Shown here piece by piece: positions 32,383 to 64,000 of a stretch of 64,000 nt of DNA; position 1 is the first letter of the stretch, and each line of letters opens with the position of its first letter. The stretch is from assembly GCA_036874045.1 (NCBI GenBank), contig CM072335.1, positions 17,677,501 through 17,741,500 on the forward strand. Direction: 5' to 3'. The DNA comes from Cymodocea nodosa. Its lineage: Eukaryota; Streptophyta; Magnoliopsida; Alismatales; Cymodoceaceae. The position numbers were made by a program, and so were the translations under genes. The notes beneath the pieces are model-generated. The model searched no databases and had not been told where the DNA came from. It saw only the letters and a program-made list of their open reading frames with translations.

Positions 32383-32390
32383 TATAAAAG
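32383..32390 (+). promoter_or_regulatory. TATA box in LTR of element C
   Basis: TATAAAAG, conserved at the same place in the LTRs of E (62593-62600 and 45890-45897, minus strand) and F (41107-41114, minus strand), is the likely promoter core. Confidence 0.55.
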
Positions 32391-33588: not shown

Positions 33589-33606
33589 TGGCGCCGTTGT
33601 CGGGGA
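33589..33606 (+). other. Primer-binding site, element C (tRNA-Asp)
   Basis: TGGCGCCGTTGTCGGGGA follows the LTR after a seven-base spacer. It matches the complement of plant tRNA-Asp with one mismatch, as is usual for Athila elements. Confidence 0.88.
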
Positions 33607-33745
33607 ATTGAATTGAATTAAATTAAATTGACTAGAATTGAATTGAATTAAATTGACTAGAATTGAATTGAATTAATATAAGCAACTGTTAGAGCTGTTT
33701 TGTTTTAATAGCCAGAGTTGTGTGTTTTCTTCTGTAATTGAGAAT

Positions 33746-34240
33746 ATGGCATATGCTTATGCTCAAAGATTTCTAAAACCTGTAATTAGCATATGTGAAT
33801 TCTACAATTCTGAAGGACATGACATATCTGAATGTTTGAAACTAAGATGTTTACAAATGGTTAGATCCCATGAACAACAAATGAATTATCCTCAATACAA
33901 TAGAGCCGAGTATGAAAATCCTATAGTTTACCCAACTGATGGTCAGTATAGAATGTGTAATATATTGAGAGACACGAAAGTTTGGGATAGGTATGACAGA
34001 CTAGAGCGTAGTATAGAGCAAAACCTTGACAAACTAGAATACTTTATGTGTCAGCAACAAGAAGTCAACCAATTAAATTATAAGGAAGCATATTCAGAAC
34101 CTAAAATGGATATAATTTACGAAATTGAAAAAACCATAATGAAAATTGATCAAAAATTGAGTGCAATGAAATTAGATGATCTAGAAAGAAAACTAAAAGC
34201 ATTAGACAAATATACAATGAAAATACAAGTTATGCAATAG
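33746..34240 (+). pseudogene. Gag C-terminal (zinc-knuckle) ORF of element C
   Basis: The first ATG after the primer-binding site (33746, MAYAYAQRFLKP) opens a 165-codon frame. It has no gag capsid-like domain; it starts almost at a degenerate zinc knuckle, CEFYNSEGHDISEC, where the second Cys of CX2CX4HX4C is Tyr. A coiled-coil-prone part rich in Lys/Asp/Leu follows (YDRLERSIEQNLDKLEYF). Element E has the same arrangement at 61249. In usual Athila elements the main gag domain would lie between the primer site and the knuckle; here only about 140 bases separate them. Confidence 0.75.
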
Positions 34241-34276
34241 GACAATGAAAATTATAATGTTATAAACCTGCATAAA

Positions 34277-35548: not shown

Positions 35549-35590
35549 ACCTATCCAATCATTATTGCTTCAGATTTAAAAGAAGATCAA

Positions 35591-36997: not shown

Positions 36998-37114
36998 CAA
37001 CCCTAGATACATCTTGACTTAGATGCAGTGCTTAACGACATAAGAAATGATATTAGGCATCTAGGAGATAAAATATGTAATGCTGTAAGTGATATACTTA
37101 GGAGGGATAGATAA
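36998..37114 (+). pseudogene. Env-like ORF of element B, C-terminal part
   Basis: After the second CAACC the env-like frame of B resumes in phase. A stop is followed by about 35 residues with spaced hydrophobic positions (LDAVLNDIRNDIRHLGDKI) and a final stop at 37112-37114. It looks like the end of a coiled coil. The phase agreement with the N-terminal part supports precise insertion of C. Confidence 0.75.
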
Positions 37115-40015: not shown

Positions 40016-42078
40016 GTTTAATTACTTTTAAATGTATATTTATAAGTTCTGCTAAAAGTAAACAAATAATTTTCACAAATTAGATATTAAATCTAATTCG
40101 TTCTTAACTACAAGTGCACAGTATATATTGTATTTGTGTGCAAGTATAGGTCGATCCCATAGAGATTGAGTAAGAATTGTATACTATTTTAATTTTTATA
40201 TTGGAGTTTACATGTGTTTAGTTAAGCACTTCGTTAAGTTATGGTTAACTCAATGGACTAACCTAGTGGACTTAAGTTATCTCCACGAGCCTACCTTTCT
40301 AATTAAATACTACTATTCAAAAAAGAATTCGACCATCCATTAGGTAGTTCCACAAAATGTAAATAACATCAATTAAGCTTTTTAATGTTCGTTAATCTGA
40401 GTTTTATCATTAATCACTACTAACATTCAAATATTTTGAATAGTAACCATTAAGAATATTTTAGTTTTCTGTATGAATCAAGTTCAGTAAACAGTAAAAC
40501 TATTTTCTATTTTCTGAATCAAACAAACATAAAACATTCATAATACTTATAATGATAACATTAATCACGATATAGACAAACAATACAACACATTAATACT
40601 AACTATAAACACAGATGATTAGTTTTTTTTGGTATTTTTGTTTTGATATGTTCCTGAAGATAAGTAAAAGGTGAAATGTAAAAAATCTCTATTGACAATA
40701 AAAACTTTCGTCACTACATGCGACGCGAATACACCACTAAAAATTTAATCACTTACAATCTTGCCTCCTCTCCCTATAGAATCGTGAACCAAAACTTGTA
40801 AGTTGATCTCCTCTTTAGTATACTAGCATCAACCTGAAACTAAGGCTAGAAGCTTTACGATCTCTTGAGATATGAGTCGGTGCTTGGTGAAAATGACTTC
40901 CCTTCCTACGACGCGATCACTCCTCACAATGGTTGTTAGTCATCGTGTTTGGCTCGGAATCAACCTGACATCTGGAAAGTATCCTCACAGGCCTTCGATG
41001 GTTGATGATTTTGGTGGTATTGTGGAGCTTCAAAGAACTTTCGCCGCTTCCTACAGTTAGCGCGGTCCTCCACCTTCACACCCACCACACAGTTTTTTCT
41101 CCTCTTCTTTTATATTTCTTTTAGTAGTAACTACTTCTGGTTAAATGATCGGTTGGATTTCCTTCATTCGTATCTAAGATGGTGATTTCATCTTCATTCT
41201 GCGAGTTAATTCCTGTGTGATACATGCAATCGTGGTTTTCCTGTAAATTTCTTGTTTCTACAACTGCTATAGTGGCATGTTAGAAAATAACTAGTTTGTG
41301 GAGTTAGTGTAACTCAATGAACTTACTTTGTTGACTTAACTATAAAACACGTGCAATAATACAACTTATAAGTTTATAACACTAACACAACATGTTACCT
41401 TAGTGTATATTCAAGTAACCCAACGTGTATAGTTATGCTAACTTAATGAGTTAAATATATGCAGCTCACGTGACATAATAAAGCATTTAATTTCAACATG
41501 TGCATAATTTTAACTTAACGAGTTTAGATACTTCGAATAGTTACAACTATAAGTATCTGAAACTTATATGCATTTCGGATAGTTAGCACCTAACCTTTTG
41601 AAAGATAACTTAAGTCAAGTTTCCAGATCGCGACACGTGTCCTCAGTTAGTTTTATAATAAAAAGATATTTTGGATACTTGCAAACCTAACTATCCAATG
41701 CTCAAATGCATTTCAGATAGTTAACATCTAACTTACCGAAAATCCACTTAAGTCACGAATTAAGGTTACAACATGTGTACTCTAGGAAATAATAAAGTAT
41801 TCTTTAAGTGTTTAAAGCATAACTATTCGGTACATAAAATGTAACTCTTCGAAATAACAGACAATTCGGATACTTAAAAATTTCAAAGCCTATAACTCAC
41901 CGATAGTTCAAAAATATACTTAATTAACATTAATTCCTTGAAATTATGTAGATTCTTTCATTAAAGCATATAATAGTGCAATTATAACATAATGGCTTAA
42001 TTCTCATATGATAAGCTAAATATTATGCAATTAACCATTATTTAACTATTAATATTATGCACTTTTTCATTCTAAACA
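40016..42078 (-). repeat. 3' LTR of Athila-like element F
   Basis: The LTR start TGTTTAGAATGAAAAAGTGC is at 42078 on the minus strand, preceded by the tract GTATGGGGGAAG. Homology with the E LTR runs to about 40020, where the last LTR bases are missing. A TATA-like CTTTTATA (minus TATAAAAG) is at 41107-41114. CCGAAA/TTTCGG words are dense at 41500-41900. Confidence 0.85.
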
Positions 42079-43884: not shown

Positions 43885-43910
43885 AAAAAATATACAAAAT
43901 CACATTTTAA

Positions 43911-44651
43911 GAACATGATTGAAAAGTAGTGACAAATGGAATAAATGTATCAATCCAAGCAAAACCTTTAGGCATCATTCTTCTTACTATTAATTCTGTT
44001 TTAATGTAATTCGCTTCCTTTTTTAACTTGTAAACTTGCAATATGTTGTCAATGCTAAATACAAGTGTATTACCATTAATGAATTGAAATGTAAAAAGGG
44101 ATCCCCTTCTATTTCAAGATAATGTAGTTGTTTCTATTGTTACATATATTTCAATATATTCCTCTTCCCACTTCCATTCATTTAGGTCTTTCATAATCTA
44201 TCTTTGAAATTTCATCAATTCATCCCACCATCTTACTAAATATAGTGTAGAATCATCATATTCATTATACCACGCTCCTAATTGAATTTTATCATGTTCT
44301 GCAAATGGTGGTTCAGTTATATCATTAGATATAGGCAATATTTCTATAAAGTCATTATCATAACTATCTATACTTACTATGTATAAATTAGATCTAAATG
44401 CAACTGATGTATCCGTGACTAGATATATATATCCATCAAGTATGATATGTATGTTATTAACTAATGCTTTCTCTCCTAGATATATCATAGTATTTTCATT
44501 CTAAGATCTATTCAGAAAATTATACACACTTAAACATAGATCCTCAACTCAATTTTCAGTTGGTACTTCAAATCTATTAGGTCTTCCTATATTCCATTCT
44601 TCTCTAGTAATAGGATTTCTAATCAAAATATCGAGTAATAGAATAGCATAC
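43911..44651 (-). pseudogene. F-box gene of element F, C-terminal part
   Basis: This is the C-terminal two thirds of the F-box protein whose N-terminus is at 63472-63784. Element E split it at a CATAC. The readable minus frame includes RSNLYIVSIDSYDNDFIEIL, KIQLGAWYNEYDDSTLYLVR and MKDLNEWKWEEEYIEI, closely matching E 50308-51360. It ends at about 43911. Compared with E it lacks some 75 bases near 44555 and has further stops. The part after the F-box resembles the beta-rich associated domains of plant F-box proteins, but I cannot assign the subtype. Confidence 0.8.
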
Positions 44652-47600
44652 TGTTCCCTTGGCAAGCACGACATTAGAAAACTTGTTTGGATCTCTAGCA
44701 ATGCACCAGAAAAACTTGGATTTGTTAACTTCTGTTTTTACTTAGTTAATTTATCTTTATGCCTATTCTTCTTTTTTTATATATAGAAGTAAACAAACAA
44801 CCTTTAATACAAGTTAGATATTAATTCCAATTTGTATTTTAACTGCAAGTGCACAATGTATATTGTATTAGTGTGCAAGTACAGGTCGATCCTGTAGGGA
44901 ATTGCTTAAGAAATGAGAACTGTTCCATTTTTAACAATCAAATTTATATATTCAATAAGCTCTCTATTGAATTACAGTTAACTCAACAGACAAAGTTCGT
45001 TGAGTTATGGCTAGCTCAACGAACTAATCTTGTGGACTTAAGTTAACTCCACGAGCCTGCATTTCCTATTTAATACAACTATTTATAGAGGAATTCGACC
45101 AACCATTGGGCGGTTCCACAGATTGTAAATAACATCAATTAAGCTCTCTAATGTTAGTAAACATTGGATTTATCATTAGGCAATACTAACATTCAGATAA
45201 TTCAAACAGTAACCATTAAAATTTTTAAGTCTTTTGAACGAACCAATTTTAATAAACTGTAAAACTAAAACAAACATAAAACAATCACAATATTGACAAA
45301 CATAACATTAATCACGATACAACACAAACAATACAAAATACAAACACAGATAAATTGTTTTTGGTATTTTTGTTTTAATATGAACATGGAAATAGGCGAA
45401 AGGTGAAATGTAAAGTAATCTCAATCAACAGTAAATACTTCTGTCACTACATACGACGCGATTACACCACTGAAAATTAAACCACTTACAATCCTGTCTC
45501 CTCTCCCTATAGAATCGTGAGTCCAGAATTGCAAGATGATCTCCTCTTTAGCATACAGGCATCAACCCGAAGTCAAGGCTAGAAGCTTTACGATCTCTTG
45601 AAATATGAGTCGACGCTTGGTGAAAATTGCTTCCCTTCCCGCGACGCAATCACTCCTCACAATGGTTGTCAGGCACTATGTTTGGCTCGGAATCGACCCA
45701 ACATTAGGAAAGTATCCTAACAGACCTCCGATGGTTGGTGATTATGGTGGTGGTGATGACGGTTGGTGTAGTACTTCAAAGAATTGCCGAAGCTGTCTGC
45801 AGAAATCTTGGTGCCCCTCCTCTATACACACTAGCCATACCCATCGATCACACACACACACACACACCTCTTCTTTATCTCTTCTTTTTCTTTTATATTT
45901 CTTCAGTGGTAACTGCTTTTGCTTGAATGGTCGGTTGGATTTCCTTCATTCATATCAATGACGATGATTTCTTTTCTCTACGCAATACGTGCGATCGTGG
46001 TTTTTTCCTTCCAACTGTCCTATTTCTACAATTGCTACAGTAGCATATTAGAAAGTAATTAGTCTGTGGAGTTACAGATAAGTCAACGGACTTACCTCAT
46101 TGATTTAACTGTAAAACACATGCATAAATTTAAGTATCCAATGCTTAGGTGAATTTTGGATACTTACAAACTTAACTATTCGATGCCGAAATGCATTTTG
46201 GATACTTATAAACATAACTATCCGATGCCCAGATGCATTTCAGATAGTTATAGCTAACTCACCGAAAATCCACTTAAGTCACTATTGAGTATTTATGTTT
46301 TGATGATGTGTGCTGAATGAAAATAATCATATTTGCTCAATTATTATTGCTTGTGAAAAGAAATTAAAATCATCAATTAATACAGAAAAAGCTTACTGAT
46401 ATAAATACTTGTCTGTATTGGATCTGAAGTTAATAACTAGTCATTTCGTTGCATTAATTTCTCATTTAGCTAAACGTTAAGTTAACGTGTGTTTTTATTG
46501 AAAAGCATGATATGTTTTAATGTTATATCTTCTGTATCATGAACAGTGCACGTTTAGACAACTCGTTAAGTTAGAGTTTTGTTTGTATAGAGGTCACGTG
46601 AGAACTCATTAAGTTAGAGGCTTAAAGGTTAAAATAGGTCACGTGATAACTCGTTAAGTTAGTGAGTAAAAGAAGAGACGAACTCGTTAAGTTAGTGTTA
46701 TACACGTGGTGAAATTATAAGTTACGAATGTTGTATTGTATCACGTGAGGTGCACATGTTTAACTCGTTAAGTTAACATAACTAAACGCGTTGAGTTGCT
46801 ATATTGAACACTAAGGCAACGCGTTAGGTTAGCATTATAAACTTAAGTTGTTATTTTTGCACGTGGTAAAATTCTTATTATAAAAACATTTGTTTATTAC
46901 TGGTTCGTTGAGTTATCATAACACAACAGAAATGGTTCGTTGAGTTATCATAACACAACAGAGATGGTTCGTTGAGATAGCATAACACCATGGACTTAGT
47001 TCGTTGAGTTAGCTACAGTACTTGTCACGTGAAATGGCACATGAGGAACTCGTTAAGTTAGAAACGTTAAGTTATATATATACTTGTGTTACTCGTTTAG
47101 TTAACATTAAAGTAACGACTTCTTATTACACTGATGAAAAACTTTTGGACAAGAAAGTTTATTTTGCAGGAAATTTTTTAGAGATCCAAGACTGATGATT
47201 AAAGAAAATTCGAAATATAAACGTGGGTTAGAATGTGTGTGTTTCGATGAAGGAAAAAGAAAAGACATGGAGAAGTGGAAAACTGGTGGTGGTTAAACGT
47301 GAAGGATATGCATGAAATGAAGATACAGTATAAAAGGCATAGAATTCTCGTTGATCAATTTATCCTTGCACACAAAAAGAAAAATCTTTTCAAGGATCAA
47401 ATCATCCCCGCACACCAAAAGAAAAATCCTTTTCAGGGATCAAAAACACCTTCTCGGGGAAAATCTCTCAAGTGGAAGAAAGTTCAGTGAAGCATAAAAA
47501 GGTAAGATTTTCGTCACTGAAGATTTGAAGTATCAGAAGAAAGCAAATTCGGTGAAGCATGAAAAGACAAGATATTCGTCACTGAAGAATTGCTGAAGAA

Positions 47601-48419
47601 GAAAAAGAAGAAGAAGAAAGATCTCAAACAGGGAGAAAAGTTTTAAATTCCGCAAATTAGTTTTCTCTATTTGTAGTTATGAAATTGTTTAGATGATACA
47701 TGGTATCGAAATATAATTGCACCTACAATTTCTGAGGAGAATTGAATTGTATATTGTAATTGAAACCTTGAATAAAAATGATTTTATGAAAACAATGTCT
47801 CGACTTGTTTTTGAGTTTTAAAGTTTCAATTATATTTCAGAAAATATTAAAAATACACAATTCACCCCCCTCTTGTGTAGCCATACGATCCTATAGTCAT
47901 TTTCCTAGAACATGACACGTGTTCACAGCTATTTTATAAATAAAAGGAGATTTCAGAGAGTTACACATATAACTTACTGATGCTCAACTGCAATTTCAGA
48001 TAGTTATAGATAACTCACCGAAAGTTCATTTAAGTCATGCATTATGGTTTCGACATGTGTATTTCAGGAAATAATAAAATATTCTTTTAAAACATATTTG
48101 TTCGGCAGTTTAAAACATAACTATCCGATATATGTTCGATATGTTAAACATAACTATCCGATATATGTTCGGTATGTTAAACATAACTAACTGAAATATT
48201 AGAAATTTCGTATACTTAAGAATTTCACAGCCTGCAACTTACTAACAGTTTAGAAATGTACTAAATTACATTAATTCCCCAAAATTAAGCAAATTCTTTA
48301 ATTAAAGCATATAACAGTGGAATTATAACATAATGGCTTAATTCTCATATGATAAGCTAAATATTATGCAATTAACCATCATTTAACCGTTAATAATATG
48401 CACTTTTTCATTCTAAACA
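44652..48419 (-). repeat. 3' LTR of element E, split by a solo copia LTR
   Basis: The LTR runs from TGTTTAGAATGAAAAAGTGC (48419) to ...CCAAGGGAACA (44652) on the minus strand. Without the 1618-base insertion it is about 2150 bases, close to the 2111-base 5' LTR. A CA microsatellite lies at about 45850-45868. TATAAAAG is at 45890-45897. A tandem array of CCGATATATGTTCG-type units occurs at 48110-48190. Confidence 0.9.
46283..47895 (+). mobile_element. Solo LTR of the copia family in the E 3' LTR
   Basis: This 1613-base LTR of the A/B family lies in plus orientation with no internal region. The terminal bases have decayed: TATTGAG instead of TGTTGAG and CCTATA instead of CCTACA. The flanks GTCAC (46278-46282) and GTCAT (47896-47900) form a target-site duplication with one mismatch. 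The uninterrupted sequence is visible in the E 5' LTR near 62983. TATAAAAGG is at 47329-47337; a short ORF at 47275-47490 is LTR leader. Confidence 0.93.
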
Positions 48420-50300
48420 CTTCCCCCGTACCTAAATTTTGCTAGTCCCTTAGCAAACTAAGATCTAATTAATTGGTCTTTCTAAAAGTGCTAGAATTAA
48501 TTCTTCCGTTTTTTTTTTCTTTTGTTTAGCATAAGAACTTGTATTATTATATAGATATACTATATGTTTCAGTAATCTATTTTAACATTGTTTTCTCCTC
48601 TTCAACTTGCAAATATACCTAGAATATATGCAAATTACATACAAAGTATATCATCATCACATAAGTGTTAATTATATTATCGTTTGTTCTTGTTTCATTA
48701 TCTGTCATCCTGAATTTTCCAATAAGATTTCTAGAAGAGATTTCAAAAACATACGAATCAAAGTACAATCCAATTCAATATGATTAAGACAACTAGAATA
48801 AAGAATTGTATCTCCATTAAACAACTTCAAAAGTCTATTCTAGATTCATATTTCAGCAATTCTAGATAACAGAAAATATACTCGATTCATAAGATATCTG
48901 TATTTCACAAAACACTTGTATGTTTTCAGAACAATATATTTATATTATTTTTTTTTTCTTCTTCTTCTTCTTTTTTTTTCTTTAAAAGTTAATTTGACAA
49001 GCTTTAATCATACAAGAGCTTTCTAATGTACCCATGTAACGAGCTTTCAGTCAACAATCCCATATCTGATCAGGATCTCAGGTTGCCAGATTTCAAGAGT
49101 CCTTTTTCAGGTCAATAATCCTTACATACCTATCTGCTCAAGTACAAAAGGCTCGTGATCAAACAAGTCAATAAACTCTCAAAATATATTTTTTTTTCTT
49201 TCTCTTTTTTTTTTCTTTTCAAAATATAAAAACAAAACAAAACATTAATCACATACTGTATATGTACGTATTTCATTAATACAGATGCAATAAAACACCA
49301 ATCTCATATAGTCCTGCTTCTATTATTTACTGAAAATATGAATCCATAACAATAAGTTCATACCTTTTTTGTAGTTTAATAAGATCTACACATAAATCAT
49401 TCTACAAGTTTAATCACGAAAATTAAATGTATCTTTAATCATATGTGTTTCATTTAATCTAGAATTCACATCTCAGCTCTTTCAGGACTTCAGATAATTT
49501 ACTGATTTTTCATTAAACATTCTGATTTCATTTTAAAATCGTGAAGGTGTTAAACTCATGAAATTCAGAAAAAACATAAGATACTATATCTAGCCTTCTA
49601 AATATAACATTCAAGCAGTTATAGTTTATAAAAATTTTATAATCTCAATTATCAGATAGTTACAGCAAGTTCCTAAAATTTTCACTTTCCACAAAACTTT
49701 GCAGTACCATTTTAATTCCTTTAATTAACAAACTTACATGGTTGTTACTTTACTTACCTCCCCCCCCATACCTACATTTTGCATTGTCCTCAATGTAAAA
49801 GATTTGATAATAAATACAGTAATTGTAGCAGGCATGAATATAGTTTCGTTGGTTTAGCACCTAACTCAATCAATGAGTTTAAATCTAAATTCAGGATAAG
49901 TAATCAGTTACATACCTTGTTTCGTTTGTATCTCCTTCTACATATTCCGATTTTTGATTCTGAAAAACTTTTCATTCACAGATAAAAGCAAAATATATAA
50001 CAAAATAACATTTAACAGATATTGATAAATCATTGTCTTGTGTGGAACCCAGGCTCCTATGCCTTTGGTGGCTCACAAGCAAGCCAGTTGGTTTCCTATA
50101 ATAGATACCAACAAACTGGATTGATATTTTGTTTTTTTCTTTTATAAAATAAAATGAAAACTACACATTTTTTTCTAAAAGTAAATGCAGAATACACACA
50201 ACATTAAACACACAAAATCACAGCTTAAGAACATGATTGAAAAGTAGAAACAAATAGAATAAACATGTTAGTCCAAGCAAACTTTTTAAGCATAATTCTT
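48420..50300 (-). other. Polypurine tract and 3' non-coding region of element E
   Basis: On the minus strand, ACGGGGGAAG lies directly before the 3' LTR. The block shared with copia B lies at about 48590-49620. GAGGACAATGC followed by TATGGGGGGGG occurs at 49757-49795, a motif typical of Athila elements after their coding region. A splice-donor-like AAGGTATGT occurs near 49917. The small hydrophobic ORF of F is degraded here. Confidence 0.7.
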
Positions 50301-50307
50301 CTTGCTA

Positions 50308-51360
50308 TTAATTCTGTTTAATGCAGTTCTTATTTCTGCTTAATTTGTAAACGTGTAATATATTATAAATTCCAAATACAAGTGTATTACCATTAATGAT
50401 ATAAAATGCAGAAAGGGATCCTTTTCGGTTCCAAGGTAATGTAGCAATTTCTATTTCTACATCTATTTCAATATACTCCTCTTCCCACTTCCATTCATTT
50501 ATGTCTTTCATAATCCATATTTAAAATTTCATCAATTCATCCCACCATCTTATTAGACATAAAGTAGGATTATCATATTCATTATACCACATTCTTATTT
50601 GAATTTTATCAAATTCTGCAGATGGTGGTTTAGCTATTTCTCTCGGTATAGGTAATATTTCCATAAAATCATCATAATTGTCTATGCTCACTATGTATAA
50701 ATCATATCCAAATGCTATTGATATATCTGTGACTAGATATACATATCCATTAAGTATGACATGCATGTTGTTAATTAATGATTTCTGTCCTAGATATATC
50801 ATAATATTTTCAATCCAAGATCTATTCAGAAAATTATACACACTTAAGCATAAATCTTCACCCTAATCTCCTGTAGGTCTCCAATAATATAATTTTTTAG
50901 GAATTGTAGAATTTTTATCAAAAAATATTAAAGTTGACCCACAATTTACAGTTGGTACTTCATATCTATTAGGTCTTCCTATATACCATTCTTCTCTTGT
51001 TATAGGATTTCTTATCAAAATATTAGGTAATAGACTTGCATACCTTGGTCTTGTCCTGTATATGATTAATCCTTCATCTATCCCCAAAATATGATCTATT
51101 CCTTCTAATGTATTTGGTGGAATTCCAGTAGTTTCTGCCATAGTCAGATATTTATGGTTAATTGAACTACGATTAAATGACCTCCATATGAATCCATCTC
51201 TAATCTTAATCATTTTTGCAGCTTGTAGTCCTTGAAAATATTTTTCTTCAATATAGTCTTTAATTTCCTTTGATACACAACATAGCCTGCACAGATCTTT
51301 AGCTGACAAGTTACTTAGTACTTCCCTTAGTGCATCCAACGGTAATTGCATCAATTTCAT
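50308..51360 (-). pseudogene. Captured F-box gene of element E
   Basis: From ATG 51360, about 350 codons in a single frame are interrupted only by stops at 50863-50865 and 50521-50523. Residues 5-45 form a clear F-box (LPLDALREVLSNLSAKDLCR, then CCVSKEIKDYI), the part that binds SKP1 in SCF ubiquitin ligases. The rest has repeated W/Y-rich beta-strand-like segments (REEWYIGRPNRYEVP, TLCLIRWWDELMKF), as in plant F-box associated or kelch-type regions. A splice-acceptor-like TTTTTGTTATACAG lies 12 bases before the ATG, conserved in element F. An upstream in-frame ATG at 51453 is not conserved. I infer host origin. The target is unknown. Confidence 0.82.
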
Positions 51361-51560
51361 TTGTTGATTCTGTATAACAAAAACAAAAATTTTAGCAGAG
51401 ACAAAAATTAACATAACTACTGCACACCCTCGTGGAATTAAGGCATAACTCAACGGACTAAGTTCGTTGAGTTAAGGACTAACTCTACAATACTATTAAC
51501 TATAAATAAAAACATATATATATATATATATAGATATATAGCTACTTCAGTTATACTGCT

Positions 51561-52896
51561 TCATTCAGCTATCCTCCTAGAAGATGTATCAATTTCATTA
51601 ACAATTCTATTGACAGGGTTAGGTACTGCTTGCATTGGCAATCCTCCAGTAGGTCTAACTTCCATTGATTCCTTCTGTCTAAGGGGTATATTTCTATTCT
51701 GATTTTGAATTGTAGCATTTCCAAATACAAAATCCAAATGATTGTTTAATTGTTGGATTATCTTTTCTAATTTCTTTATTCTAGATCCTTGTTCCAATAA
51801 TGCTTCATAACTTATATTCTTCTCATTTATATTTTCTCCTCCTTGGAAATTTTTGTTTCTCCAAGATAAATTCGGGTGATTTCTCTAATTAGGATTATAA
51901 GAATTTCCAAAGTTATCTTTCTGATTTCTAGCATAAATAATATCTAGATCATTAATGTTTGCATTCTTTTCTGCTAGCTTTTGATTTAATGATAACTCTT
52001 CTATTTTCTTTCTTAATTCATTTAATTTCACCTCAAGCATAGTACTTGAATCTATTTCATGCATTCCTCTTGGCAATATTCTTTTATCTGCAATAGCTTC
52101 AGCCGAGTTTTCCCACTGTATAGTTCTTTTTGCAAAGTTTTCTAAATATGCCCATGCTTCTTCACTACATAATTTCAAAAATCCATTTTGACGAGTAGAT
52201 TCTAATAACGATTTTGTTGAAACATCTATGCCTTCATAAATTATACCTATTAATTGTACTTTACTCATTGCATGATGTGGACATTGAGTCAGTAAATCTT
52301 TCAAAATATTTTCAGAATGATTCACCCTATTTTTGGCTACACATTAATATTTCCTTTTTCTTTTTAATCGTTTGATGTGTTGGATAATATTTTTCCAAAA
52401 AAATAGAGCAAAATTTAGTCTATGCAGAAATTGAATCAGACGACAGAGTATATAACCATCTCTTAGCTGTTTCTTTTAAAGCAAAAGAGATATATCTAAG
52501 TTTAATAGCATCTATACTCATGTTCGACATTTTCATCATTTGACAAACTTCGTTAAATTCTCTAAGGAAATAATAGGCATCCTCTCTTTCTAATCCATGA
52601 AAATGTGGCAATTGACTAACATAATTAGATTTCAGTTCAAATCTATCTCCCTCAAAGTTTGGCAATCGAATACATGAAGGTTCATCCACTAATTCCGGAT
52701 ACAGAATTTCTCCTAATGGTTTTTCTACTGGAGCAGCCATCTCTACATTCTCTTTTAAAGAAAGGTTAGCTACAGCCCTAAGAATTTCATTAAAGTCTAG
52801 TTCAGAAAATGTTTCAATGTGCCTCTGTGTTGAATATTCCTGGGTAGGTGTTCTTACTAATCGATTAGTGCTCAAAGAATGAGTCCATGTGCTCAT
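51561..52896 (-). pseudogene. Athila gag main domain, displaced to 3' end of E
   Basis: ATG 52896 opens a frame with the Athila-type gag domain: CIRLPNFEGDRFELKSNYVS, FLREFNEVCQMMKMSNMSID, IKLRYISFALKETAKRWLYT. After a break, FLEKYYPTHQTI and LLTQCPHHAMSKVQLIGIIY follow, with EEAWAYLENFAKRTIQW. The tail has NHPNLSW and a coiled-coil part, then RPTGGLPMQAVPNPVNR. Breaks occur at 52420 and 51885. No zinc knuckle is present; it sits at the other end of the element (60365-61249). In usual Athila elements this domain directly follows the primer-binding site, so the position after integrase and the env-like ORF is odd. Confidence 0.85.
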
Positions 52897-53849: not shown

Positions 53850-56092
53850 CTCTATTCCTAAGTTCATCTACTTCCTTCTAGAGTTTTTCTAATTATTGCT
53901 CTAATTGATTAATTCTCTCTACGGCTCTTGTAATGCTTCTAGAAGGTGCAACAATCTCTATAGGTACAAAATTTCTGTATTCTTTCACTGAAATGGTTCT
54001 TGACTTGATCCTTTTTGATGCCCACTTAGTGAAATCTATATAGTCCACCATCAGTAGTGGAATCAAATCTCCATAAAACAATTTTTTCTTTACTGTTCTC
54101 AGCTTGGAGATAAAAACTACAGACCAATTTATTGGAATTCTCTTTACAACTGCAAACGTGGCCCATTTGACAAATTGATTCAGTTCTATGTCATGGCTTG
54201 TCGTTGATAGACATTTTTAATTAAAATGTTGGCTACCATGTGTGTTTTACCATTTAAATGCTTCAGTCTATTTAATAAAGGCACACCAAGATTGATAGCC
54301 AAACTGTCCTTGATATTTGCTCTGTCCATTCAACGGCAGTTGTACTTTCCAATATTTCCTGCCCTTCATTCTTCAACCCAAAAATGTTGTGGAGAAGCTC
54401 TAGTGTTATCTGTACATCAGCTTCTTCCACGTTGGAAATTAATTTTCCTTCTTCTTCTCTTAAATTTGCATAAAAACAGGGCACTAGATTTTCATATACT
54501 ACATGCCCTCTTTCTTGAGAAATAAAATTCAGTAGACCTTGGAACTCAAACAATTCTTTGATTTCTAGCTTTCCATCCCAATTTACTGGTCTACTGTAAA
54601 TAATATCATAACCCCTAATTTCTTGGTATTTAGTATAAGCTTCCTAACTCCAAAAATGTACTTCATTCAGAACTGTTGTTTTAGTCGGGTCAGGAATTTG
54701 CATTTGTTGCTCTAGAGGGGTTTGTTCTTGATCTTCTTCCTCCATATGCTGCATTTAAACATGTTTTGCAGATTCCAGAATTTTTGCTTGTGCTTTTGTC
54801 TCAGGTGGTGAGCCAACAGAACTCTCCACTCTGTCTTGAATTCTTTCCATATATTGCTGAAGAGTTTCTTGCTCTTCAGTGGAATCTACAAAGTCATTTT
54901 TGTCCAAATGACTTCTTTCAGCTTCTTCATTTTCTGTTCTTTCTTCTTCCTCCTGACTACCAATCTGCATTGTAACTGTTCTTTCTGATTCTGTGACAGA
55001 TTGGGATGGAGTCATGGGCAATTCAGTTTCTACCCTAATTTCTATTTCTTCTTTTTGTATAGGCTGCAGACTAATTTCAGCTTGTTTTTCTTCTTTTCTT
55101 TACTCCTCCTGCTGCTGCTCCTGCTCATCCTCAGAATCGGATAGCAGGTCTATAAAAATTGGCTCCACAGGCCCTTTTGAAATTGGTATTTCAGATTTAG
55201 TCTCTTTTTGATACTCAGGCACTATCTCTTTTCCTTTCCTTCATGTGATTAATTGTGCCTGTTATTCCTCTTCTTCATCTGAGATTAAATTTAAAAATAA
55301 AGGCTCTGCACACCTTTGAGCCACAGGTACTGGCTCTTCCTGTTTAATTCTTTCAATATTTGCTAGTCTTGAGGGACTAGCTTCAGCTTCTTTTGCAGCA
55401 AATCTGACAGCAGTTCTAGCAATAGTCTCTTGATGTTGTTCCACCTTAATTTTGTACTAGGCCCTCAACTTTTCTTCGGCCCTTTTTCTCTTAATGGCAT
55501 CATATAAAATATGTGCCTTAGCTGTAGCTATTTCTTCATTATCACCTTGGTCTCTTACTATCTTGACCAAGCTAGGAAACTCTTTCTCTTCTTCATCAGT
55601 TCTCGGCCAAGCAAATGCTACTCGTGACAATGGCTCTATTGGCTGAACTAGAGGTCCTAACTGCTATTCCTCAGGAACAGGTCTTTCAACAGTTGGTTCC
55701 TCCCGTTCTTCAGTTGCCTCTTCTTCATTTTCTTTCCTTTCTTGCTCCCAGATCGCCCATCTAGCTCGTCTACAGATTCATCTTTTGAACCAGAGCCAAG
55801 ACTTACATTGGATTAATTCTAGGGCAACTTCATTACTTGGCCTTATTTTTCTTTCCTTGCTTACAACAATTTCTGTAGCAACCTTTATTCTTGTTTCCAT
55901 TATTTGAGGTATTTGTATACCTAAATCTACTAAATCTCTTCTAAAATTGAAAAGTTTCGATTCTACCTTCTGTAGCTCTTTCTCTCTTGTCGTATTTCTA
56001 ATCTTCTACCGCGTGTGCCATTCTTCTGATTCCTTCAGAAATTCTGATGTGTCAACAGCCTCTTCCTAGAACTCGGGTGTCATCTTCTTCAT
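53850..56092 (-). pseudogene. Env-like accessory ORF of element E
   Basis: ATG 56092 (MKKMTPEF) starts a long decayed frame on the minus strand. The first 350 codons are Glu-rich with several LLSDSEDE/LISDEEEE-like acidic clusters. The central domain has YSRPVNWDGKLEIKELFEF, FYANLREEEG and ITLELLHNIFGL. Then come NILIKNVYQRQ, INWSVVFISKL and KLFYGDLIPLLM, and a final coiled-coil-like RAVERINQLEQ. It is collinear with the env-like ORF of copia B and with M. Stops, many at Gln codons, and at least two frameshifts near 54270 break it. No signal peptide or clear membrane span is seen, so 'envelope' is positional only. Confidence 0.72.
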
Positions 56093-56609: not shown

Positions 56610-57820
56610 AAGCTCGAGTAGTCCTCTACTTTGACTTCTTCTATAATTCCAAAGGAGCTTTTTGATGTTTTCAGAATAGGTCTAAGTCTTTGTCCATTTA
56701 CTTTAAATATATTCTGATTTTTAGGATTTTCAATTTCAATAGCTCCATAAGGATAAATATTTCAAACTATGTAAGGTCCTGCCCATCTAGATCTTAATTT
56801 TCCTAGATGGTTATGGAGTCTAGCCATATACATATATACCTCTTTTCCTATTTCAAAGCTTTTTGGAATAATTTTTCTATCATGTCAAAATTTCATTTTC
56901 TCTTTTTCTCTTACAATCTTCGAATAAGCTTCATTTCTAAATTCTTCTAATTCAATTAGTTGCATTTTTCTATTTTCAGAAGCTTGAATTAAATTAGTTT
57001 TCAGAGTTTTTAATGCCTAACAAGCTTTATGTTCTATTTCAGCAGGTAAATAACAACTTTTTCCATATACTAGCCTAAAAGGTGACATACCTAAGCTTGT
57101 CTTATAAGCAGTTCTATAAGCCTAAAGTGCATCTATCAATCTATTAGCCCAATCTATTCTAGTAGGATTTACTACTTTTTCTAAGATTAACTTAATTTGT
57201 TTGTTAACACTTTCTACTTGTCCACTTGTTTGCAGATGATATGATGTTGCAATTTTGTGGTTTATTCCATATTTCTTCATTAAGGCTTCAAAACTTCTAT
57301 TACAGAAATGAGTTCCTCTATCACTGATAATAGCTTTAGGTATTCCAAATCTGGCAAATATATTGGTTCTTATAAATTGTATTACCACTTTGTTGTCATT
57401 AGTTTTTGTAGGAATAGCTTCTATCCATTTAGATACATAATCCACCCCCAACAATATGTAATTAAATTGATTAGACATAGGAAATAGACCCATAAAATAT
57501 ATTCCCCACACATCAAAAATTTCAACCTCAACAATAGGATTAAGAGGCATCATATTCCTCTTTGATATTCTTCCTATTTATTGACATCTTAAACAACTTA
57601 AGCAATATTTATGAGCATCTTTGAATAGTGTTGGCTAATAAAATCCACATTGCAGAATTTTTGCAGTAGTTTTCCTTGAACCAAAATGCCCTCTGTAAGC
57701 TTGGTCATGACAGAAACACAATATGCTCTGATATTTAGTTTTTGGAACACACCTCCTTAAAACCAGATCAGGACATTTCTTAAATAAGTATGGGTCTTCC
57801 CAATAGTAATATTTTACTCT
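56610..57820 (-). pseudogene. Integrase of Athila-like element E
   Basis: On the minus strand the zinc module is visible around 57600-57720 (HDQAYRGHFG, then CLSCLRC). The catalytic core at 57122-57553 has the first Asp in EIFDVWGIYFMG, the second in SDRGTHFCNRSF and the Glu in SGQVESVNKQIK. The C-terminal part has [16 protein letters not shown], the GPY-type LRSRWAGPYIV and VNGQRLRPIL, ending near 56610. Stops at about 57120, 57019, 56885 and 56765 break it. GPY-type C-termini and the position after RNase H fit Ty3/gypsy. Confidence 0.88.
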
Positions 57821-59440
57821 TCAGAAAAACAATTTCTTATCCTGTCTATTCCAATCCTTAGGTGTTAAACCAGTAACTAAGTAATTAACTATGTCTATAT
57901 ACCAAGGCATTGTGTTGATGGTCATTAATTGTTCATAAGGAAAATTATCCCTAATTTCAATATTTGATTTTTCTATTTGTAATCTTGATAAATGATCTGC
58001 TACTACATTCTCACATCCTTTTTTATCTTTAATTTCTAGATCAAATTCTTGTAATAATAATATCCACCGGATCAATCTAGGCTTCATTTCTTTTTTCTTT
58101 ATTAAGTGTTTTAAGGCTGCATGATCCGTGTATACTATTACTTTAGCTTCAATCAGATAGGATCTAAACTTTTCTAAGGCAAACACAACAGTTAATAGTT
58201 CTTTTTTAGTAGTTGTGTAATTAACTTGAGCACCATTTAATGTTTTGCTTGCATAATGAATCACTCTAGGAGATTTTTCTATCTTCTGTCCCAACACTGC
58301 TCCTATAGCAAAATCAGATGCATCACACATTAATTCAAATGGATGGCTCCAATCAGGTGCTTGAATTATAAGAGTTGAAATTAAGCTAGTTTTAAGTTTG
58401 AAAAATGCTTCCTTGCAATTTTTATCAAAGTTAAATGGGACATCTTTTAATAGATTAGTTAAAAGTCTAGCTATTTTACTAAAGTCTTTAATAAATCTTC
58501 GATAAAAACCAGCATGTCCTAGAAATGATCTAATATCTTTTACTGATTTAGGTTCTGGTAGATTAGAAATTACTTCTATTTTAGCTTTATCTACTTCCAA
58601 CCCTTTCTTAGAAACAACATGCCCTAAGACTATTCCTTGTTTAACCATGAAGTGACATTTTTCCCAATTTAAAACCAGATTTTTTTTTCACACAGCGTTT
58701 TAATATTTGGTCTAAATTGCTTAAACAAACTTCAAATGAGTTGCCATATACAGTAAAATCATCCATAAATATTTCTAAAAAGTCTTCAGTCATTCCAGTA
58801 AATATGCCCTACATACACCTTTGAAAGGTAGCTGGTGCATTGCATAATCCGAATGGCATTCTCTTAAAAGCATAAGTTCCATTAAGACAGGTGAAAGTTG
58901 TTTTCTCTTGATCCTCTGATGCTACTGGAATTTGATTATAACCTGAATACCAGTCTAGGAAACAAAAATATTCTTGCCCTGCTAATCTTTCCAGCATTTG
59001 ATCTATAAAAGGTAAGGGGAAATGATCTTTCCTAGTCACTATATTCAGTTTTCTATAGTCTATACATACTCTCCAGCTTGATTGAATTCTAGTAGGTATC
59101 AAGTCTTGACTTTGATTCCTAATAAATGTTAATCCTAATTTCTTGGGAACTACATGGATTGGACTAACCCACGAGCTATCAGAAATCGGATAAATTATGT
59201 CATTATCTAACCATTTCACTATTTCCTTCTTGACTACTTCTTTAAGGTTTAGATTTAATCTCCTCTCAAGAATTCTAATAGGTTTAGCATTCTCTTCTAA
59301 ATATATGTGGTGACAGCATAAAGTTGAATTTAACCCTTTTATATCAGTCATAGTCCATCCTATGGCTTCTTTATAACTTTTTACTACATCTTTTAATTTA
59401 TCTATTTGATCCTCTTTTAAATCTGAAGCAATAATGATTG
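57821..59440 (-). pseudogene. RT and RNase H of Athila-like element E
   Basis: The RT part (58809-59351) contains WRVCIDYRKLNIVTRKDHFP and PFGLCNAPATFQRCM; a stop (Gln in C) at 58809-58811 precedes the catalytic FMDD near 58755-58770. A frameshift follows in a T-rich stretch at about 58680. RNase H (57960-58648 frame) has [31 protein letters not shown]-like and [13 protein letters not shown] segments, ending in [11 protein letters not shown]. Comparison with C, where this region is mostly open, shows which stops are recent. Confidence 0.9.
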
Positions 59441-59447
59441 GACAGGT

Positions 59448-60350
59448 TCATTTCTCTTCCAAAAATATATAAGTTAATTTAGGAGGTAAAGGTTTTAATT
59501 CTAAATGTTGCCCATCAGAAGCTAGAGCTCCTAATTGAACATCATCACTTTCTAAATTAATTTCTTCCACATCTCCTTCTATATTTATGCTTTCACTTTC
59601 CTCTAAAGTTTCAGAATTGATTTGTTTATTTAATTCTTCTTGAATCACATCATCTAACATATCTCCTTCATCTTCTAAAAAATCTATGGTATGTAAGGAC
59701 ATTTCTAATTCCTCAAACCTTTCTGGTTTGAAAATATTTAATTGAGTATCCTCATTACCATATGATAACTTCATTACTCCAGTTTTACAATTTATAACAG
59801 CTCCTGATGTTGCTAAAAATGGCCTTCCCAAAATTAAAGATGTATCACTATTTTTATACTTAATTTGTTAGGAATCCAAAATTACAATATCAATAGGATA
59901 TATAAAGTTTTTGATTTTAATTAAGACATCCTCTATTTTTCCTCTAGGGTATCTTATACTTCTATCAGCTAATTGAATAATCGTACTAGTAGGAATTAAG
60001 CCTTCTAATCCTAAGGATGTAAATATATCACTTGGCATAACATTTATACCTGCACCTAAGTCTATTAAGGTTCTTTCTAGAATGGTATTTCCTATGGTGC
60101 ATGATATAACAGGGATTCCAGGATCAGATAACTTTTTAGTAATTTGTGGAAGAAATAGGGAACTACTTTGCTCAGCTAAAAAGACCTTTCTAAGAATTTT
60201 TCGCTCTCTTTTCTTAGTACACCAATCCTTTAGAAATTTAGCACAATGTGGCATTTTCTGCAATAGATCTAATAAAGGAATGTTAACTTGTACTTTTTCA
60301 AAAATTTCTCTGATTTTTTCTTATTTTTCAGGTATTGTTTGTTGTAATCT
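59448..60350 (-). pseudogene. Protease region of Athila-like element E
   Basis: This matches C 34700-35548. The active site DLGA is at 60051-60062 on the minus strand (ERTLIDLGAGINVMPSDIF). One stop near 59868 separates this from the flap-side part (GRPFLATSGAVINCKTGVM), and another lies near 60322. The acidic tail and LELKPLPPKLTY lead towards RT. Confidence 0.86.
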
Positions 60351-60364
60351 TTCAAGATAGGGTG

Positions 60365-61249
60365 CTAAAGATTGTGATCTAAAAGATTTTTTTCTTTCAT
60401 TTGATTTGTTTGATCATTTTTAACTTCATTAGCAGATTCAAATTGTTCTTCAGTGATCTCTAGATTTTCAACTATTACATTTTCATTATCATTTTGATTT
60501 TTACTCTTATCCACCTTCATATTATTTTCATTTTGAGTTCTTAGTGGTATATCAGTTCCAGATCTTAATGTTACACATACATCTTCCAGATTTTCTTTAC
60601 TCTCATGATGTTTTTGTATATCATTTTCGTGATTATGATCTTCAATTGTTTTTAGTTTTAAAGTGCATTCTTTAAATTCTCTTGCATTAATAGTTTCTGT
60701 TTGCTGTATATTTTGCAAATTATGCAGATCTATAACATTATAATTTTCATTGTCCTATTGCATAACTTGTATTTTCATTGTATATTCGTCTAATGCTTTT
60801 AATCTTCTTTCTAGATCATCTAATCTCATTGCATTCAATTTTTGATCAATTTTCATTTTGGTTTTTTCAGTTTCATACATTATATCCATTTTAGGTTCTA
60901 AATATGCTTCCTTATAGTTTAATTGGTTGACTTCTTGTTGCTGACACATAAAGTATTCTAGTTTGTCTAGGTTTTGTTCTATACTACGCTCTAGTCTGTC
61001 ATACATATCCCAAACTTCAATGTCTCTCAACATATTACACATTCTATACTGACCATTAGTTGGGTAAACTATAGGGTTCTCATACTCGGCTCTATTATAT
61101 TAAGGATAATTCATTTGTTGTTCATGGGATCTAGCCATCTGCAAACGTCTCAGTTTCAAACAGTCAGAAAGGTCGTGACCTTCAGAATTGCAGAATTCAC
61201 ATATGCTAATTACAGGTTTTAGAAATCTTTGAGCATAAGCATATGCCAT
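60365..61249 (-). pseudogene. Gag C-terminal (zinc-knuckle) ORF of element E
   Basis: ATG 61249 starts MAYAYAQRFLKP, as in C. The degenerate knuckle CEFYNSEGHDLSDC-like segment (second Cys is Tyr) follows within 20 residues. Then come YDRLERSIEQNLDKLEYF and, after a stop at about 60752, an Asn/Glu/Lys-rich region with the Athila VTLRSGTDIP motif at about 60545-60575. A stop near 61098 is a Gln codon in C. Only about 86 bases separate the primer-binding site from this ATG, so the main gag domain is absent here. Confidence 0.78.
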
Positions 61250-61335: not shown

Positions 61336-61353
61336 TCCCCAGCAACGACGCCA
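61336..61353 (-). other. Primer-binding site, element E (tRNA-Asp)
   Basis: The minus strand reads TGGCGTCGTTGCTGGGGA, two mismatches from the tRNA-Asp complement, after a seven-base spacer (AGTTTTA) identical to that in C. Confidence 0.86.
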
Positions 61354-61360
61354 TAAAACT

Positions 61361-63471
61361 TGTTTGCTTGGCAAGCACGACACTAGAAAACTTGTTTGGA
61401 TCTCCAGCAACGCACCAAAAAATCTTGGATTTGTTAACTTTTGTTTTTACTTAATTTATCTTTATGCCTATTCTTCTTTTTTTATATATAGAAGTAAACA
61501 AACAACCTTTAATACAAGTTAGATATTATTTCCAATTTGTATTTTAACTGCAAGTGCATAGTGTATATTGTATTAGTGTGCAAGTATAGGTCGATCCCAT
61601 AGGGAATTACTTAAGAAATGAGAACTGTTCCATTTTTAACAATCAAATTTATATATTCAATAAGCTCTCCGTTGAATTACAGTTAACTCAACGGATAAAG
61701 TTCGTTGAGTTATGGCTAACTCAATGGACTAATCTCGTGGACTTAAGTTAACTCCACGAGCCTGCATTTCCTATTTAATACAGCTATTTACAGAGGAATT
61801 CGGCTAACCATTGGGCGGTTCCACAGATTGTAAATAACATCAATTAAGTTCTCTAATATTAGTAAAGATTGGATTTATCATTAGGCAATACTAACATTCA
61901 GATAATTCAAACAGTAACCATTAAAATCTTTAAGTCTTTTGAACGAACCAATTTTAGTAAACTGTAAAACTAAAACAAACATAAAACAATCACAACATTA
62001 ACAAACATAACATTAATCATGATACAACACAAACAATACAAAATACAAACACAGATAAATTATTTTTGGTATTTTTGTTTTAATATGAACATGGAAATGG
62101 GCGAAAGGTGAAATGTAAAGTAATCTCAATCAACAGTAAATACTTCCGTCACTACATACGACGTGATTACACCATTGAAAATTAAACCACTTACAATCCT
62201 GTCTCCTCTCCCTATAGAATCGTGAGTTCAGAATTGCAAGATGATCTCCTCTTCAGCATACAGGCATCAACCCGAAGTCAAGGCTAGAAGCTTTACGATC
62301 TCTTGAAATATGAGTCGACGCTTGGTGAAAATGGCTTCCCTTCCCGCAACACGATCACTCCTCACAGTGGTTGTCAGGCACTTTGTTTGACTCGGAATCG
62401 ACCCGACATCAGGAAAGTATCATCATAGACCTCTGATGGTTGGTGATTATGGTGGTGGTGATGACGGTTGGTGTGGTACTTCAGAGAATTGCCGAAGCTG
62501 TCTGTAGAAAGCTTGGTGCCCCTCCTCTGTACACACTAGCCATACCCATCGATCACACACACACACACACCTCTTCTTTTTCTCTTTTTTTTCTTTTATA
62601 TTTCTTTAGTGGTAACTGCTTCTGCTTGAATGGTCGGTTGGATTTCCTTCATTCATATCAACGACGATGATTTCTTTTCTCTGCGCAATACGTGCGATCG
62701 TGGTTTTTTCCTTCCAACTGTCCTGTTTCTGCAACTGCTATAGTAGCATATTGGAAAGTAACTAGTCTGTGGAGTTACAGATAACTCAACGAACTTACCT
62801 CGTTGATTTAACTATAAAACACATGTATAAATTTAACTATCCAATGCTCAGGTGCATTTCAGATACTTACAAACTTAACTATCTGATGTCTAGATGCATT
62901 TCGGATACTTATAAACTTAACTATCCGATGCCCAGATGCATTTCGGATAGTTACAGCTAACTCACCGAAAATCCACTTAAGTCAATTTCCTAGAACATGA
63001 CACGTGTTCACAGCTATTTTATAAATAAAAGGAGATTTCGGAGAGTTACACATATAACTTACCGATGCTCAATTGCAATTTCGGATAGTTATAGATAACT
63101 CACCGAAAGTTCACTTAAGTCATGCATTATGGTTTTGACACGTGTACTTCAGGAAATAATAAAATATTCTTTTAAAACATAACTGTTCGGCAGTTTAAGA
63201 CATAACTATCCAATATATGTTCGGTATGTTAAACATAACTATCTGAAATATCAGAAATTTCAGATACTTAAGAATTTCACAGCCTGCAACTTTCTGACAG
63301 TTCAAAAATGTACTAAATTACATTAATTCCCCAAAATTAAGTAGATTCTTTAATTAAAGCATATAACAGTGCAATTATAACATAATGGCTTAATTCTCAT
63401 ATGATAAGCTAAATATTATGCAATTAACCATCATTTAACCGTTAATAATATGCACTTTTTCATTCTAAACA
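61361..63471 (-). repeat. 5' LTR of Athila-like element E
   Basis: This LTR of 2111 bases runs from TGTTTAGAATGAAAAAGTGC (63471) to ...CCAAGCAAACA (61361) on the minus strand. TATAAAAG is at 62593-62600, and a CA microsatellite at about 62555-62572. The 42-base hairpin repeats lie at about 62829-62958. CGTTGAGTTA/CTCAACGGA words are at 61660-61760. Short ORFs inside (for example 62440-62670 and 62769-62960) are LTR sequence. Confidence 0.92.
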
Positions 63472-63784
63472 CATACCTTGGTTTGGTTCTATAAATAATC
63501 AATCATTCATCTATCCCCATAATATGATCTATTCCTTCTAATGTATTTGGTGGAATTCTAGCATTTTCTTCTATATTCAAATATTCATAGCTGATTGAAC
63601 TACGATTAAATGACTTCCATAAAAATCCATCTCTAATATTAGTCATCTTTGCTACTTGTAGTCCATGAAAATATTTTTCTCTGACACATTCTTTAATTTG
63701 TCATGACACACAACACAATCTGCATAGATCTTTAACTAATAAGTTACTCAGTACTTCCCTCAGTGCATTGAGTGGTAATTCCAT
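63472..63784 (-). pseudogene. F-box gene of element F, N-terminal part
   Basis: ATG 63784 starts MELPLNALREVLSNLLVKDL, followed by CRLCCVS, a stop (Lys in E), and QIKECVREKYFHGLQVAKM. It matches the F-box of E residue by residue with differences, so it is a second copy and not a duplicate of the same insertion. The frame runs to the CATAC at 63472-63476, where element E cut it; the C-terminal part is at 43911-44651. TTATGTTATAG before the ATG keeps the splice-acceptor-like pattern seen in E. Confidence 0.84.
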
Positions 63785-64000
63785 TTGTTGTGTTTCTATA
63801 ACATAAACAAAATTTAAATAGAGATAAAATTAACATAGCTACTTACATATCTTCGTAGAGTTAGGTCATAACTCAACGGACTAAGTTCATTGAGTTAAGT
63901 AATATCTCTATGGTATTACTAACTATAATTAAACTTTTATTTTCTTTGTTTTTATATTTTTTTACTTACTATATTATACATAGTTGCTAACAATTATACT
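63785..64000 (-). other. Element F sequence upstream of its F-box gene
   Basis: No gene is visible. The sequence follows E 51361-51545 (CTCAACGGACTAAGTTC at about 63870-63890, same words in E at 51450) and leaves the window before any gag could be seen. Confidence 0.6.

What the first reader, a model, noticed from the sequence alone, without database searches (positions are those of the whole stretch)
50308..51360. F-box gene carried as a resident module of an Athila-like retrotransposon family
An F-box protein gene lies between the gag domain and the 3' LTR of E. A second, diverged copy (63472-63784 plus 43911-44651) occupies the same relative place in outer element F, before the same 3' non-coding region and LTR. 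Two separate insertions, one nested in the other, carry it, so it was multiplied with the element and is not a chance neighbour. F-box proteins recruit targets to SCF ubiquitin ligases. Some plant viral proteins (polerovirus P0, nanovirus Clink) use F-boxes against silencing or cell-cycle control. A counter-silencing role for a retrotransposon F-box is my speculation.
Basis: partly seen in the sequence, partly recalled or inferred. Interest (0 to 1): 0.87.

Follow-up and report, generated by a model that had tools for sequence, protein, structure and literature searches.

The report
Retrotransposon carrying an F-box gene
A plant jumping gene of the retrovirus-like kind carries its own version of a host gene whose products normally mark proteins for destruction, and the gene bears the marks of having been kept useful while the element spread, although both copies seen here are now broken.

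Summary
On the minus strand, 50308-51360 is a plant-type F-box + F-box-associated gene, now with two in-frame stops. It lies between a gag-like ORF and the 3' non-coding region and 3' LTR of an Athila-like element, E. E has matching LTRs and a 5-bp target duplication, and it landed inside the same F-box gene of an older relative, F (pieces 63472-63784 and 43907-44651). E and F share leader, F-box, 3' region, polypurine tract and LTR in one order, so a host gene hit by transposons is excluded.

E-F divergence of the F-box shows purifying selection: dN/dS 0.38 (0.26-0.58), 42 synonymous-change codons against 25.4 expected (0 of 3000 shuffles), no shared stops, few indels. Pol pieces give 0.39. 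A splice-acceptor-like sequence precedes the start codon in both copies.

Best reading: a captured host SCF-receptor gene kept as an accessory gene of this lineage. Its target, including the proposed anti-silencing role, is untested. The genome could not be searched, so copy number and host parent are unknown. Captured accessory ORFs are known in such elements. My paper searches met one F-box "LTR-gene" (Thlaspi), but no F-box described as a resident, selected element gene.

The parts
50308..51360 (-). F-box + FBA gene of element E (whole span, two in-frame stops)
   Evidence: Pfam F-box E 2.5e-10; TIGR01640 E 1.6e-6, below its curated cut-off
63472..63784 (-). N-terminal piece of the F-box gene of element F, up to the insertion of E
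   Evidence: tblastn 72% over 105 aa; nucleotide alignment 82.7%
43907..44651 (-). C-terminal piece of the F-box gene of element F (26 codons lost relative to E)
   Evidence: tblastn; alignment 84.5%; 78-nt gap
63472..63476 (.). target-site duplication GTATG, 5' side of E, in F's F-box
44647..44651 (.). target-site duplication GTATG, 3' side of E
61361..63471 (-). 5' LTR of E
   Evidence: 94.4% (1624 nt) and 95.3% (487 nt) to the 3' LTR pieces
44652..48419 (-). 3' LTR of E, interrupted at about 46285-47893 by an LTR-like repeat shared with the window's Copia elements
61336..61353 (-). primer binding site, tRNA-Asp type (2 of 18 mismatches; 1 of 18 in element A)
   Evidence: tRNA letters recalled
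48420..48427 (-). polypurine tract GGGGGAAG of E (same in F at 42079-42086)
48421..50307 (-). 3' non-coding region of E, 84% to F 42080-43910 (1724 aligned nt)
40047..42078 (-). 3' LTR of F (far edge approximate)
51361..51511 (-). leader of the F-box in E: palindromic hairpin and a 3' splice-site-like sequence ending at 51370, 9 nt before the ATG
63785..63934 (-). the same leader in F (3' splice-site-like sequence ending at 63796, 11 nt before the ATG)
51885..52896 (-). gag-like ORF pieces just upstream of the F-box (label recalled, no Pfam match)
53896..55099 (-). Athila/env-like region (label partly recalled); weak Transposase_32 (PF20167) match
57122..61042 (-). end of gag (label recalled), protease (weak match), RT, RNase H, integrase of E
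31346..37051 (+). related element A: LTR and 5'-pol block only (pol yardstick for dN/dS); no F-box seen

Best explanation
An ancestor of E and F, an Athila-like Ty3/gypsy lineage, acquired a host F-box/FBA gene once, in sense, between its coding block and its 3' non-coding region, and then kept it as an accessory gene. Shown: the gene, its identical position and flanks in two insertions, and purifying selection on it between them. Inferred: it was translated from a spliced or otherwise subgenomic RNA (splice-site-like sequence just before the ATG in both copies) and made an SCF substrate receptor whose F-box binds the host SKP1 and whose FBA domain binds a target. Inferred and much weaker: the target is a host protein that limits the element (silencing or RNA-decay factor), or the element's own proteins.
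For: F-box and FBA profile matches. Same order leader - F-box - 3' region - PPT - LTR in E and F. NG86 dN/dS 0.38, bootstrap 0.26-0.58, 0 of 2000 at or above 1, on 314 aligned codons with stop codons then skipped. Replacement test: 42 codons with synonymous change against 25.4 expected, 0 of 3000 shuffles; 83 nonsynonymous against 95.8, p 0.008; the other two frames show no such excess. No shared in-frame stops in the coding frame, against 30 and 32 in the other two. Three internal gaps (78, 3 and 1 nt) in 961 aligned F-box bases against 28 in 1725 of the 3' non-coding region. Pol pieces E against A have the same dN/dS, 0.39 (0.27-0.56), 751 codons. The splice-site-like AG ranks 4 of 1008 AGs in E's interior with a recalled plant table.
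Against: Only two copies, both broken; genome-wide copy number unknown. dN/dS is a pairwise average and NG86 is biased by transition excess (the replacement test is the guard); NG86 dS (0.36) exceeds non-coding divergence. The stop-codon deficit alone is not significant (5 against 9.0 expected, p 0.07), and codon positions differ only mildly (54, 39, 61). F's splice-site-like sequence scores 6.2, below the top 15 of E's list (15th 7.05), and two of the three higher-scoring AGs in E (60050, 51287) lie in coding sequence, so the model is not specific. The host parent was not found: no relative scored E<=1e-3 among 24 and 643 candidates. The fold was of no use (mean pLDDT 35.5). A is cut before the place where an F-box would be. 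Expression is untested. The FBA match is below its curated cut-off.
Confidence: 0.68

Rival explanations
1. Passive passenger: a host F-box was transduced and copied along without benefit to the element; the low dN/dS reflects time spent as a host gene or method bias.
For: Captured genes in plant LTR elements are common; in rice many are thought to become pseudogenes, whereas in sorghum more were under purifying selection (PMC3726574, passages). An F-box 'LTR-gene' that was then tandemly duplicated is mentioned in Thlaspi (PMC8764390, passages). Both copies here are broken.
Against: E and F share both junctions, so their split came after capture and the selection between them acted inside the element. 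The excess of synonymous change survives a context-keeping replacement test and equals pol.
Confidence: 0.2
2. E is a mosaic: a pol-carrying relative (like A) recombined with a pol-less gag-F-box family (perhaps F), so the F-box belongs to non-autonomous partners mobilised in trans. (Compatible with the best explanation; its odds overlap with it.)
For: In E the gag-like ORF lies after pol and the Athila-type region, and A and E start with only the end of gag. In Arabidopsis only four of eleven gag-defined Athila families have pol; the rest carry gag or gag+env, and recombination with pol-carrying families is documented (PMC2410132, passages and one section).
Against: F's 5' part is outside the window. 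The gag labels are recalled. Matching LTRs and TSD show that E moved as one unit, so any recombination came before its insertion.
Confidence: 0.35
3. A host F-box gene family into which elements inserted.
For: The gene is host-like in domain make-up.
Against: Both copies are followed by the same non-coding region, PPT and LTR, and E's copy lies inside E's own LTR pair with TSD.
Confidence: 0.02

Closest known systems
Extra/additional ORFs (eORF-3'F, aORF-3S) of plant Ty3/gypsy elements, including env-like and Athila ORF-1 (PMC7264820, PMC6317226)
   Same: Sense ORF between pol and 3' LTR of an Athila-like element
   Different: A recognisable host protein family with F-box; no F-box is named in the parts of these papers that I read, and the word has 0 occurrences in PMC6317226
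AlkB/2-ODD (m6A demethylase) ORF of Phalaenopsis Gypsy elements (PMC9289625)
   Same: Host enzyme domain captured, kept through element diversification, proposed to counter host control
   Different: Different domain; many consensus copies and in vitro activity there, two broken copies and no assay here; the text of this 121-genome screen holds no 'F-box'
F-box 'LTR-gene' TaChr6G576 of Thlaspi arvense (PMC8764390)
   Same: An F-box gene assigned to duplication by an LTR retrotransposon
   Different: Described as a host gene then tandemly duplicated; the passages seen say nothing of its being a resident gene of an element family or of its element type
YgdH/LONELY GUY domain ORF in Citrus elements (PMC9289625 citing Steinbauerova 2011; LOG-like in Athila recalled)
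   Same: Host gene domain found in Gypsy-type elements
   Different: Cytokinin-related domain, not a ubiquitin-ligase receptor
Viral F-box proteins: polerovirus P0, nanovirus Clink (PMC3588083)
   Same: A parasite-coded F-box that engages host SKP1-type proteins
   Different: No sequence test of relationship was made. P0 is described as lacking typical C-terminal domains, whereas this one has a plant FBA-like region

Membership tests
Plant F-box/FBA proteins | N-terminal F-box | tested here: met
   PF00646, 40.3 bits against cut-off 20.5
Plant F-box/FBA proteins | C-terminal F-box-associated domain | tested here: inconclusive
   TIGR01640 E 1.6e-6 over residues 112-333, below the curated cut-off; no Pfam FBA family listed at E<=10
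Athila (Ty3/gypsy) retrotransposons | LTR pair, 5-bp TSD, PPT | tested here: met
Athila (Ty3/gypsy) retrotransposons | primer site for tRNA-Asp close to the 5' LTR | tested here: met
   2 of 18 (E) and 1 of 18 (A) mismatches, 7 nt after the LTR in E (tRNA letters recalled). In Calypso and Diaspora the tRNA-Asp site begins 5 bp after the LTR (PMC1142308, passage)
Athila (Ty3/gypsy) retrotransposons | RT, RNase H, integrase of gypsy type | tested here: met
   PF00078, PF17917, PF00665; lineage tree not built
Athila (Ty3/gypsy) retrotransposons | Athila ORF-1/env-like domain | tested here: inconclusive
   PF20167 E 0.0019 and 0.0038, below cut-off; PF03078 not listed. In PMC6317226 Athila ORF-1 was found in 16% of Athila elements (passage)
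Athila (Ty3/gypsy) retrotransposons | gag before pol | tested here: inconclusive
   only a gag end at the 5' side; the gag-like ORF after pol is labelled from recall
Conserved accessory ORF (not chance capture) | present in all or most copies of the family | not testable with these tools
   The genome search did not complete. Of six related LTR starts looked at, two (42078, 48419) are preceded by a PPT and an element interior, and both carry the F-box; A is cut before that place
Conserved accessory ORF (not chance capture) | purifying selection between copies | tested here: met
Viral F-box silencing suppressors (P0-like) | suppresses silencing / degrades AGO1 | not testable with these tools
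   needs assay

The most novel reading that the evidence does not exclude
A retrotransposon lineage that codes for its own SCF ubiquitin-ligase receptor, expressed from a spliced RNA as retroviral accessory genes are, and uses it to destroy a host factor that restrains the element.
Probability: 0.22. Interest if true: 0.87.

Novelty: new variant of a known kind. Interest (0 to 1): 0.6.

Why it matters
Plant LTR elements often carry accessory ORFs of unknown function. One with a recognisable biochemistry (SKP1 binding, target choice) and selection equal to pol would give a direct handle on how such elements act on their host. It would be a counterpart to retroviral accessory genes that hijack ubiquitin ligases (recalled: Vif, Vpr, Vpx) and to plant-virus F-box proteins.

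Tried and rejected
Host gene family hit by elements: rejected. Two independent captures: unlikely, because leader (80.5%), F-box (83-84.5%), 3' region (84%) and LTR (79%) diverge alike; but NG86 dS (0.36) exceeds non-coding divergence, which I ascribe to transition bias without a separate test. Relatives of the F-box: none at E<=1e-3 in the protein database (165-aa piece; 351-aa span with X). That database does hold plant proteins, but the search needs exact shared 5-residue words, so this excludes close relatives only. None in viral contigs or genome contigs (bacteria and archaea); gag-like piece none in viral contigs. No further F-box match in the window: at E<=10 only 11- to 27-residue chance matches. 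PDB by sequence: nothing relevant. Fold: mean pLDDT 35.5, only the F-box stretch at 56-69, so no fold search was made. F-box-flanking terminal inverted repeats of a DNA transposon: none convincing among the 25 of 34 pairs shown. The hairpin before the F-box folds well (z -4.9 and -3.8), but it is one of a dispersed palindrome family and not specific to the F-box. Literature: listings of searches (open-licence papers only). Of the listed papers with the word F-box beside Athila or LTR retrotransposon I looked for passages in three: PMC8764390 mentions one F-box 'LTR-gene' in Thlaspi; in PMC10673657 the F-box genes are auxin receptors with phasiRNAs; in PMC13310191 the word is in a reference only. 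The others were not opened. Steinbauerova 2011 and Wright and Voytas 2002 were not held.

Full report
What is there. The window is a nest of plant LTR elements, Gypsy type (RVT_1, RT_RNaseH, rve) and Copia type (RVT_2, gag_pre-integrs). On the minus strand E runs from 63471 to 44652. Its 5' LTR (61361-63471) and 3' LTR (44652-48419) match at 94.4% over 1624 bases and 95.3% over 487 bases; the 3' LTR is split by an LTR-like repeat shared with the window's Copia elements. The LTR starts TGTTTAG and ends AACA, preceded at its 3' copy by the polypurine tract GGGGGAAG. GTATG is repeated at both outer edges. The LTR divergence (K 0.058) corresponds to about 2 million years at 1.3-1.5e-8 per site and year (1.5e-8 is the rate quoted in PMC2410132, the other is recalled). 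A site with 2 of 18 mismatches to a tRNA-Asp complement follows the 5' LTR (letters recalled).

The F-box gene. 50308-51360 reads as one 351-codon frame with two stops before its end. The F-box is clear (E 2.5e-10). The rest aligns to TIGR01640, the F-box-associated domain, across residues 112-333 (E 1.6e-6, below that family's cut-off). This match runs past both stops, so the frame beyond them belongs to the same gene. No Pfam FBA family is listed at E<=10.

The second copy. F's F-box is in two pieces because E landed in it. The target duplication lies inside F's coding sequence. Downstream F has the same non-coding region (84%, 1724 aligned nt), the same polypurine tract and the same kind of LTR (79%). 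Upstream, the 149 aligned leader bases are 80.5% identical. The F-box therefore belonged to the element before E and F parted. F's 5' half is outside the window. No other F-box match occurs in the window. Of six related LTR starts looked at, only E's and F's 3' LTRs are preceded by a polypurine tract.

Selection. On 314 aligned codons (those with stops then skipped), dN 0.138, dS 0.362, ratio 0.38 (bootstrap 0.26-0.58; 0 of 2000 at or above 1). Because a transition-rich pair inflates dS in this method, I re-placed the 154 observed differences at random on sites with the same base and following base. Synonymous-change codons were 42 against 25.4 expected (0 of 3000), nonsynonymous 83 against 95.8 (p 0.008), new stops 5 against 9.0 (p 0.07, not significant). 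The two other frames show no such pattern. Differences by codon position are only mildly uneven (54, 39, 61). Internal gaps: three (78, 3, 1 nt) in 961 aligned F-box bases against 28 in 1725 of the 3' region; gaps at the cut ends were left out. As a yardstick, 751 codons of five gag-end/pol pieces of E and of relative A give 0.39 (0.27-0.56) (two stops in A's RNase H piece skipped). These are different pairs of different age, so the equality is only indicative. Since both copies have decayed freely after insertion, the constraint while active was probably stronger (inference).

Expression. In both copies a T-rich stretch ending in AG sits 9 and 11 nt before the start codon. With a recalled plant acceptor table E's site ranks 4 of 1008 AGs in E's interior. 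F's scores 6.2, below the top 15 of E's list, and two of the three better sites in E lie in coding sequence. This suggests, and does not show, a spliced mRNA such as has been reported for the env-like gene of barley Bagy2 (PMC7264820, text read in two of three parts).

Odd order. In E the gag-like ORF lies after pol and after an Athila/Transposase_32-type region, just before the F-box. At the 5' side only the end of gag is present, in E and in A. Pfam does not confirm either gag label. A mosaic of a pol-carrying and a pol-less gag-F-box element would explain it; such pol-less and recombinant Athila families are documented in Arabidopsis (PMC2410132, passages and section 5).

Comparison. Extra ORFs are found in most elements of the Ogre/Tat/Athila clade (PMC6317226, passages; PMC7264820). 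A screen of 121 angiosperm genomes named captured domains such as PMD, G-patch, AIR1, YgdH, B3 and AlkB; its text has no 'F-box' (PMC9289625, abstract, two sections and passages). Its five-consensus filter could hide a low-copy family. A rice/sorghum survey of captured genes has no 'F-box' in its main text (PMC3726574, passages). One F-box 'LTR-gene' is mentioned in Thlaspi (PMC8764390, passages), so carriage of an F-box by an LTR element is not by itself without precedent. Viral F-box proteins P0 and Clink (PMC3588083, passages) are an analogy only.

Limits. The source genome could not be searched in ten tries, so copy number, host parent and species are unknown. The protein search needs shared 5-residue words and therefore rules out close relatives only. 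No structure of use was obtained.

Verdict. The F-box gene is a genuine resident of an Athila-like lineage and was probably functional for it. Its use against host silencing remains a guess.

Noticed in passing
61668-61761, 44979-45056, 33249-33310, 32175-32220, 46904-47104, 38296-38486, 21193-21383, 15021-15193, 56274-56368, 53248-53410, 51446-51475, 63852-63898: A dispersed palindromic unit (TYCGTTGAGTTA on alternating strands 16/17 nt apart, period about 33) occurs 155 times at up to 2 mismatches, against 8-17 in ten mononucleotide shuffles; TCCGTTGAGTTA has 95 matches against 4.3 expected. It is shared by Athila-like and Copia LTRs and sits in each of the three gaps between E's coding blocks (integrase/Athila region, Athila region/gag-like, gag-like/F-box). 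Could be a regulatory or template-switch site; one paper search gave nothing to the point. Unexplained.
   Followed up: partly
51885-52896 and 60755-61042: E seems to have gag in two places: the end of gag before protease and the gag-like main part after pol (labels recalled).
   Followed up: partly
10912-10919 and 28008-28015: Two Copia-like stretches end at about the same internal point and abut Athila-like sequence: an LTR start without polypurine tract in one case, a piece of the 3' non-coding region in the other.
   Followed up: partly
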